In this document: positions 44,022 through 44,637 of the stretch, in pieces
How the letters are laid out: the number at the start of each line of letters is the position of its first letter
Position numbering within the stretch: the first letter of the stretch is position 1
Source: Thiomargarita sp.
Lineage (GTDB): Bacteria; Pseudomonadota; Gammaproteobacteria; Beggiatoales; Beggiatoaceae
DNA length: 59,157 bases
Direction: 5' to 3'
Assembly: GCA_020721045.1 (NCBI GenBank)
Contig: DYNN01000008.1
Span: forward strand, 1 to 59,157
Translations under genes and position numbers: made by a program
The notes under the pieces: generated by a model
What the model was told of the DNA's origin: nothing
Seen by the model: the letters and a program-made list of their open reading frames with translations, nothing else
Databases searched by the model: none

Positions 44022-44097
44022 AAAATCCTCAGTATCGTGTAAAAATAAACCCGTTCTTTATCAACCACATGTTTGTTGACAAAGAATGAGTTGTTAA

Positions 44098-44385
44098 TTA
44101 TTCGTGTGCGATGGTTTTCTCTGTAAATAGATAATCTTTTAATTCCTTATCAAAACTGGCATCTTTGCGACGAATCCATTCAAGAACCATTGCCGCATGT
44201 TCTTTTTCTTCATCTCGGTTATGTGCAAGAATCGCTTTTAATTCTTTGTTTTTGCACGCATCAACCCGTTGATTATACCAATCCACAGCTTCCAATTCTT
44301 CCATTAATGAAGTGATAGCACGATGCATATCCCTAGTTTCATCTGTTAACTCGCTTATCGGTTCATGATAACCTTCATTTGCCAT
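44098..44385 (-). CDS. EncFtn-family ferritin-like protein without loading peptide
   Basis: A 95-aa protein closely resembling encapsulated ferritins (R. rubrum EncFtn type): SLMEELEAVDWYNQRVDAC and AILAHNRDEEKEHAAMVLEW are near-identical blocks. By alignment Glu30, Glu60 and His63 correspond to the di-iron ferroxidase ligands, and Glu29, Glu32, Glu59 and Trp36 to flanking iron-entry residues. EncFtn forms an annular decamer. Encapsulated members have a C-terminal extension with a shell-targeting peptide; here the protein ends at FTEKTIAHE right after the conserved core. The neighbouring genes are endA and a histidine kinase, not an encapsulin. GGAGG lies 7 nt before the ATG (complement of 44392-44396). 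It may be an unencapsulated iron-oxidising or iron-handling homologue. Confidence 0.85.
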   Translation of the reverse strand: MANEGYHEPISELTDETRDMHRAITSLMEELEAVDWYNQRVDACKNKELKAILAHNRDEEKEHAAMVLEWIRRKDASFDKELKDYLFTEKTIAHE

Positions 44386-44637
44386 AAATTACCTCCATTA
44401 TATTGATTAATTTAATGTTTTATCGCCAAATAGCACTGTCCATCAGTGTGCGATTTGTTGACGTTGGATTTCAAACTTGTCATAAGATACCTGTGCAGAT
44501 TGCCCTTGTAAAGTTAAAAGAAGAGATTCACATCGATAAATGCGACAATCACCGTCTTGTCGTCGTTGTTGCTCTCCACATTTTAAGCTTTCTTTTGGCG
44601 ATCATTTTGGTATTTTAGTGGTTTTGATTATAAAATT

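What the first reader, a model, noticed from the sequence alone, without database searches (positions are those of the whole stretch)
44098..44385. EncFtn-type ferritin core without encapsulin gene or loading peptide
The protein has the diagnostic EncFtn segments and di-iron ligands but ends immediately after the fold. Encapsulated members need a C-terminal shell-binding peptide and usually lie beside the shell gene; both are missing, and endA and a sensor kinase are the neighbours. It may be a free annular ferroxidase that hands iron to another store, or cargo for a distant shell bound differently.
Basis: partly seen in the sequence, partly recalled or inferred. Interest (0 to 1): 0.7.

Follow-up and report, generated by a model that had tools for sequence, protein, structure and literature searches.

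The report
Tailless EncFtn ferritin without encapsulin shell
This gene encodes a small ring-forming iron-oxidising protein of a type usually packed inside a protein shell, but here, as in scores of related bacteria, the shell and its docking tail are absent; the class is already described, though its job without a shell is unknown.

Summary
Window 44098..44385 (-) is an intact 95-aa EncFtn-family protein with every ferroxidase ligand and no loading peptide. No frameshift hides a tail, and its near-complete genome has no encapsulin gene. It is an ordinary member of a described class, the "s-FLP" (short ferritin-like protein; type structure 3K6C, NE0167 of Nitrosomonas europaea, also 95 aa, about 83% identical). 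A 2024 review left open whether s-FLPs are encapsulated and listed their C-terminus (LFTxKPIAHE) as a putative targeting peptide.

My survey argues against encapsulation. In 11 of 11 genomes with a tagged EncFtn the shell gene is adjacent. In about 120 genomes with a tagless EncFtn it is never adjacent. Four of these carry a shell elsewhere; two of those shells sit beside their own tagged EncFtn, and a third (the fourth is its unexamined congener) beside a tagged DyP peroxidase. The IAH ending is conserved in genomes without a shell.

The gene is solitary, with no conserved neighbours. The "hands iron to another store" idea finds no ferritin, bacterioferritin or Dps in this genome. Best reading: a free decameric ferroxidase. 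Its physiological role is untested.

The parts
44098..44385 (-). tailless EncFtn-family protein (s-FLP), 95 aa plus stop
   Evidence: ORF; PF22277 148.8 bits; TIGR04535 133.8 bits; 3k6c E 1.6e-48; AlphaFold2 model pLDDT 88, VIA Z 11.3 to 3k6c
44392..44396 (-). ribosome-binding site GGAGG, 6 nt before the ATG
   Evidence: sequence
44290..44301 (-). E29-E30-x-E32: ferroxidase ligand E30 (Rru E32) and entry-site glutamates E29/E32 (Rru E31/E34)
   Evidence: roles from PMC5012862 and PMC11202242
44197..44208 (-). E60-x-x-H63 ferroxidase ligands (Rru E62, H65)
   Evidence: invariant in 157 aligned EncFtns; codons
44254..44256 (-). Cys44, nearly invariant in tailless EncFtns (142/145), minority in tagged ones (4/12)
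44101..44124 (-). short C-terminus TEKTIAHE in place of a loading peptide; IAH conserved
44048..44092 (-). strong RNA hairpin followed by a U-rich run: probable terminator, so the gene probably ends its transcript
   Evidence: -17.8 kcal/mol, z -5.2

Best explanation
It is a shell-independent EncFtn (s-FLP). Two copies of the helical hairpin pair to build a di-iron ferroxidase site (E30, E60, H63 from each subunit), and five such pairs form an open ring of ten. The ring works free in the cytoplasm, binding Fe(II) through the glutamate gateway (E29/E32) and oxidising it with O2 or peroxide. It cannot enclose a mineral, so its most likely job is Fe(II)/oxidant detoxification or short-term iron buffering rather than storage. 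Shown here: sequence, ligands, absent tag, absent shell, class-wide absence of shell linkage. Inferred from homologues: ring assembly and ferroxidase activity. Hypothesis only: the physiological role.
For: All ferroxidase and gateway residues are invariant across 145 tailless and 12 tagged EncFtns, apart from one Q at the position of E32. The closest solved relative, 3k6c, has 95 aa without a tag and is reported to form decamers like encapsulated EncFtns (PMC11202242). EncFtn without a shell is an active ferroxidase but cannot mineralise iron (PMC5012862). No shell in the window's genome. Across genomes: tagged EncFtn has an adjacent shell in 11/11; tailless EncFtn in 0/120, with shells anywhere in 4/120 against a baseline of 8/397. 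Of the four shells in tailless genomes, two sit beside their own tagged EncFtn (L127, L128), and of the other two, in congeneric genomes, the one examined (L043) sits beside a DyP peroxidase ending SLGIGSLKK.
Against: No biochemistry exists for any s-FLP in the papers I could search; 3k6c is an apo structure. Free Rru-EncFtn gives precipitating Fe(III) in vitro, which would be harmful in a cell unless a partner takes the product. No Fur-box signal was found upstream across about 99 loci, so there is no regulatory support for an iron role. No partner gene is conserved nearby.
Confidence: 0.62

Rival explanations
1. The protein is cargo after all: the conserved LFTxKPIAHE end is a cryptic targeting peptide for a shell encoded elsewhere (the possibility listed in Eren et al. 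2024).
For: The C-terminus is strongly conserved; the review lists it as a putative, uncharacterised TP.
Against: No PF04454 shell in the window's genome and no PF19307 above cut-off; no shell in 116 of about 120 tailless genomes. Where a shell exists and its locus was examined, it has its own tagged partner. The ending lacks the L-x-I/V-G-S-L type motif.
Confidence: 0.05
2. A free ferroxidase that passes Fe(III) to a separate store (ferritin, bacterioferritin or Dps).
For: 32 of 39 sampled genomes with a short EncFtn also encode a PF00210 protein.
Against: The window's own genome has none, nor do 6 other sampled short-EncFtn genomes; the rate of PF00210 absence is the same with and without EncFtn (7/39 each), so there is no link either way. 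No such gene is conserved beside it.
Confidence: 0.12
3. A small di-iron protein with another task, such as peroxide or nitric-oxide scavenging, metal sensing or repair, not iron handling as such.
For: An open ring cannot store iron; a near-invariant Cys44 and a C-terminal His distinguish the tailless class from tagged EncFtns; rubrerythrin-like sulerythrin appears among fold matches (Z 8.6, within the range of common helical arrangements).
Against: The ferroxidase and iron-entry residues are all retained, and the conserved Cys and His have no known role.
Confidence: 0.2
4. A relic: an encapsulin operon that lost its shell and whose EncFtn is decaying.
For: Tagged and tagless forms interleave on the tree, with at least 3 tag changes.
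Against: 83-94% identity over the full length across alpha-, beta-, gamma- and zetaproteobacteria, with no premature stops except one doubtful locus, indicates strong purifying selection.
Confidence: 0.01

Closest known systems
s-FLP / NE0167 of Nitrosomonas europaea (PDB 3K6C; 'Ne-EncFtn', PMC11202242)
   Same: 95 aa, about 83% identical, same ending (IAHE), all ferroxidase ligands, no targeting peptide
   Different: NE0167 has Leu where the window and nearly all relatives have Trp36, and Phe for His7. No substantive difference in kind.
Rhodospirillum rubrum EncFtn Rru_A0973 (PDB 5DA5)
   Same: same fold (Z 11.2, rmsd 1.4 over 82 residues), same ferroxidase site
   Different: 140 aa with a C-terminal SLGIGSLK-type shell-binding tail; encapsulated in its organism; Ser in place of Cys44
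Haliangium ochraceum EncFtn (PDB 5N5F), Myxococcus xanthus EncB/EncC (7S5C/7S8T)
   Same: EncFtn fold and EXXH ligands
   Different: tagged, encapsulated cargo; EncB/EncC only about 30% identical

Membership tests
s-FLP (short, tagless EncFtn; Eren et al. 2024) | EncFtn core matching the family profile | tested here: met
   PF22277 148.8 bits, TIGR04535 133.8 bits above cut-off; fold Z 11.3 to 3k6c
s-FLP (short, tagless EncFtn; Eren et al. 2024) | no long C-terminal extension and no targeting peptide; LFT(D/E/N)KPIAHE-type end | tested here: met
   ends YLFTEKTIAHE; no tag in any frame downstream
s-FLP (short, tagless EncFtn; Eren et al. 2024) | decameric ring | not testable with these tools
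   only a monomer was predicted; decamer reported for 3k6c (PMC11202242)
Encapsulated EncFtn cargo (FLP-TP) | C-terminal shell-targeting peptide (L/F-x-V/I-x-x-L/I consensus) | tested here: not met
   absent
Encapsulated EncFtn cargo (FLP-TP) | encapsulin shell gene in the genome, normally adjacent | tested here: not met
   no PF04454 in a 99.92% complete genome; PF19307 best E 0.485, below cut-off
EncFtn ferroxidase | ligands E32/E62/H65 and entry site E31/E34 (Rru numbering) | tested here: met
   E30/E60/H63 and E29/E32
EncFtn ferroxidase | Fe(II) oxidation activity | not testable with these tools
   needs an assay; shown for Rru, Hoch, Pfu and Tm EncFtn (PMC11202242), not for an s-FLP

The most novel reading that the evidence does not exclude
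Tagless EncFtns are a large class of free-standing iron enzymes that is functionally independent of encapsulins in Pseudomonadota. The shell-cargo form is the rarer specialised one, with the tag gained or lost several times. The conserved Cys44 and C-terminal His serve a shell-free function, such as docking to an unknown Fe(III) acceptor or a second metal site, and in ferritin-less genomes like this one it is the main protein handling excess Fe(II).
Probability: 0.3. Interest if true: 0.6.

Novelty: new member of a known kind. Interest (0 to 1): 0.36.

Why it matters
The standard account says EncFtn oxidises iron and the encapsulin shell stores it, so an EncFtn without a shell should be useless or harmful. 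In the sampled Pseudomonadota genomes the shell-less form outnumbers the shell-linked form, and its sequence is tightly conserved. That makes 'what does an open ferroxidase ring do with its Fe(III)?' a directly testable question with a deposited structure (3K6C). The survey also argues against reading the s-FLP C-terminus as a targeting peptide, and against naming all TIGR04535 hits 'encapsulin-associated'.

Tried and rejected
Hidden tail by frameshift: none in any frame before endA. Operon or functional neighbours: no gene family recurs in more than 5 of 79 s-FLP neighbourhoods within 4 genes, and the window's endA and methyltransferase have no match in any other s-FLP locus; the kinase matches only through generic ATPase domains. 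Fur-type regulation: the best match to a 19-nt Fur box upstream of s-FLPs is no better than in control or shuffled DNA (means 10.5, 10.0, 10.2), and no shared dyad or 8-mer stood out. s-FLP as a substitute for classical ferritins: PF00210 is absent in 7/39 genomes with a short EncFtn and 7/39 without, so no trend. Plasmid carriage: no relevant match for the gene in plasmids. One upstream small reading frame (about 52 codons, 44445-44610) had no relatives in the fetched loci. Giessen and Silver 2017 could not be read; its classification of s-FLPs as non-encapsulated is cited through PMC11202242.

Full report
OBSERVATION. The ORF 44098..44385 on the minus strand encodes 95 residues and has a good ribosome-binding site. 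It is an unambiguous EncFtn-family protein by Pfam PF22277 (148.8 bits against a cut-off of 27) and NCBIfam TIGR04535 (133.8 against 125). Its ferroxidase ligands E30, E60 and H63 (R. rubrum E32, E62, H65) and the entry-site glutamates E29 and E32 (E31, E34) are present. It ends YLFTEKTIAHE-stop. None of the three frames downstream encodes a loading peptide, and a strong hairpin follows the stop (z -5.2).

CLOSEST RELATIVE. The best solved match is PDB 3k6c, NE0167 of Nitrosomonas europaea: also exactly 95 residues, aligned end to end, E 1.6e-48. An AlphaFold2 model (mean pLDDT 88) matches 3k6c at Z 11.3 with 83% identity over 87 residues, and R. rubrum EncFtn at Z 11.2 (rmsd 1.4 over 82). For helical bundles such Z values alone are not decisive, but the identity is.

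IT IS A DESCRIBED CLASS. The 2024 review by Eren and colleagues (PMC11202242) names four kinds of encapsulated ferritin-like protein. One is 's-FLP': short proteins without an apparent targeting peptide, typified by 3k6c. It says they were first classed as non-encapsulated (citing Giessen and Silver 2017, which I could not read), that 3k6c forms decamers, that it is unclear whether the C-terminus holds an undefined binding sequence, and it lists LFTD(E/N)KPIAHE as a putative uncharacterised targeting peptide. The window protein is a textbook member.

NO SHELL IN THIS GENOME. The window lies in a genome of 3.39 Mb, 99.92% complete, in 253 contigs. It has no match at all to PF04454 even at E 10, and only a sub-threshold chance match to PF19307 (E 0.485). 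It has one EncFtn gene, this one. It also has no PF00210 protein, so no classical ferritin, bacterioferritin or Dps; the same search is positive in all 14 control genomes. Families 3 and 4 of encapsulin-like shells were not tested.

CLASS-WIDE TEST OF ENCAPSULATION. I searched evenly drawn Pseudomonadota (397 genomes), the window's own family (42) and the class of genome G134 within the same phylum (289) for EncFtn, and searched the genomes that had it for PF04454. I also searched 50 s-FLP genomes from the named loci. I read the C-terminus of each EncFtn. Eleven genomes carry a tagged EncFtn (SLGIGSLK, FTIGSLK, LTIGRMK and the like) and all eleven have the shell gene beside it. About 120 carry a tagless EncFtn and none has a shell beside it. 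The count may contain a few duplicate species, because genomes reached by the two routes are unnamed. Four tagless genomes have a shell elsewhere (3%, against 2% of all Pseudomonadota drawn). In two of these (L127 in a Thiohalocapsa MAG; L128, fragmentary) the shell sits beside a second EncFtn with its own tag. The other two are congeners; in the one I examined (L043) the shell sits beside a DyP-type peroxidase ending SLGIGSLKK. The pattern is clean: tag and shell go together, and tagless EncFtn goes with neither. The conserved IAH ending is therefore unlikely to be a targeting peptide, since it is kept where there is no shell to target.

TREE. A core-only tree of 102 EncFtns (tail columns left out) needs four tag changes, at least three on well-supported branches. 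Tagless proteins do not form a single clade: a large IAH-type group (containing the window and NE0167) and a second tagless group, mostly from the class sampled, flank the tagged ones. With 89 columns many forks are unresolved, and the unrooted tree cannot tell gain of the tag from loss.

SIGNATURES. Ferroxidase residues are invariant in both kinds apart from one Q at the E32 position. Two features differ: Cys44 is present in 142 of 145 tagless proteins but 4 of 12 tagged; and a His within the short C-terminal segment is present in 129 of 145 tagless but none of 12 tagged. Many tagless sequences were chosen for similarity to the query, so these figures are inflated by relatedness. The role of either residue is unknown.

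CONTEXT. The gene is solitary. Across 79 neighbourhoods no family recurs in more than five, and the window's endA and methyltransferase have no counterpart beside any other s-FLP, while the kinase is matched only through generic ATPase domains. No Fur-box enrichment was seen upstream.

MECHANISM. From R. rubrum EncFtn: free EncFtn is an active ferroxidase, forms an open ring, cannot mineralise iron, and precipitates Fe(III) in vitro; with the shell it stores thousands of irons (PMC5012862). A shell-free EncFtn is therefore best read as a cytoplasmic Fe(II) oxidase or buffer, not a store. What takes the Fe(III) is the open question.

VERDICT. Observation confirmed; interpretation partly right (free ring likely), partly contradicted (distant shell, hand-off to a classical store); class already described. 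What is added here is class-wide comparative evidence against encapsulation, and the absence of any ferritin-family store in this particular genome.

Noticed in passing
L023-L026 (genomes G071, G051, G122, G223): A very divergent tagless EncFtn-like protein (104 aa, SEEFKHFGMDLEF, ending ILFTTGDIVKAGE..EKKVD) in one genus with 6-7 Mb genomes; it lies on a long branch and its ferroxidase neighbourhood is altered (EEAEA, EEFKH).
   Followed up: partly
genomes G013, G064, G096, G100 (family f48; G064 contig matches L126, a Zetaproteobacteria MAG): Four of five sampled genomes of a zetaproteobacterial family carry an s-FLP but no PF00210 ferritin, bacterioferritin or Dps, notable because zetaproteobacteria are typically iron oxidisers.
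   Followed up: partly
L128 (genome G455): Truncated tagged EncFtn (71-aa frame ending SPTIGNLKLS) immediately followed by a fragment of an encapsulin frame; possibly a decaying EncFtn-encapsulin operon or an assembly fault, in a genome that also has an intact s-FLP.
   Followed up: partly
window 44445-44610 (-): A short Cys-containing reading frame (about 52 codons, SPKESLKCGEQQRRQDGDCRIYRCES...IAH) between the sensor kinase and the s-FLP; no relatives in the fetched loci.
   Followed up: partly
L088 (Pseudomonadales MAG HM.42): The s-FLP frame is interrupted after 53 aa although tblastn covers all 95 residues; sequencing error or pseudogene.
   Followed up: no
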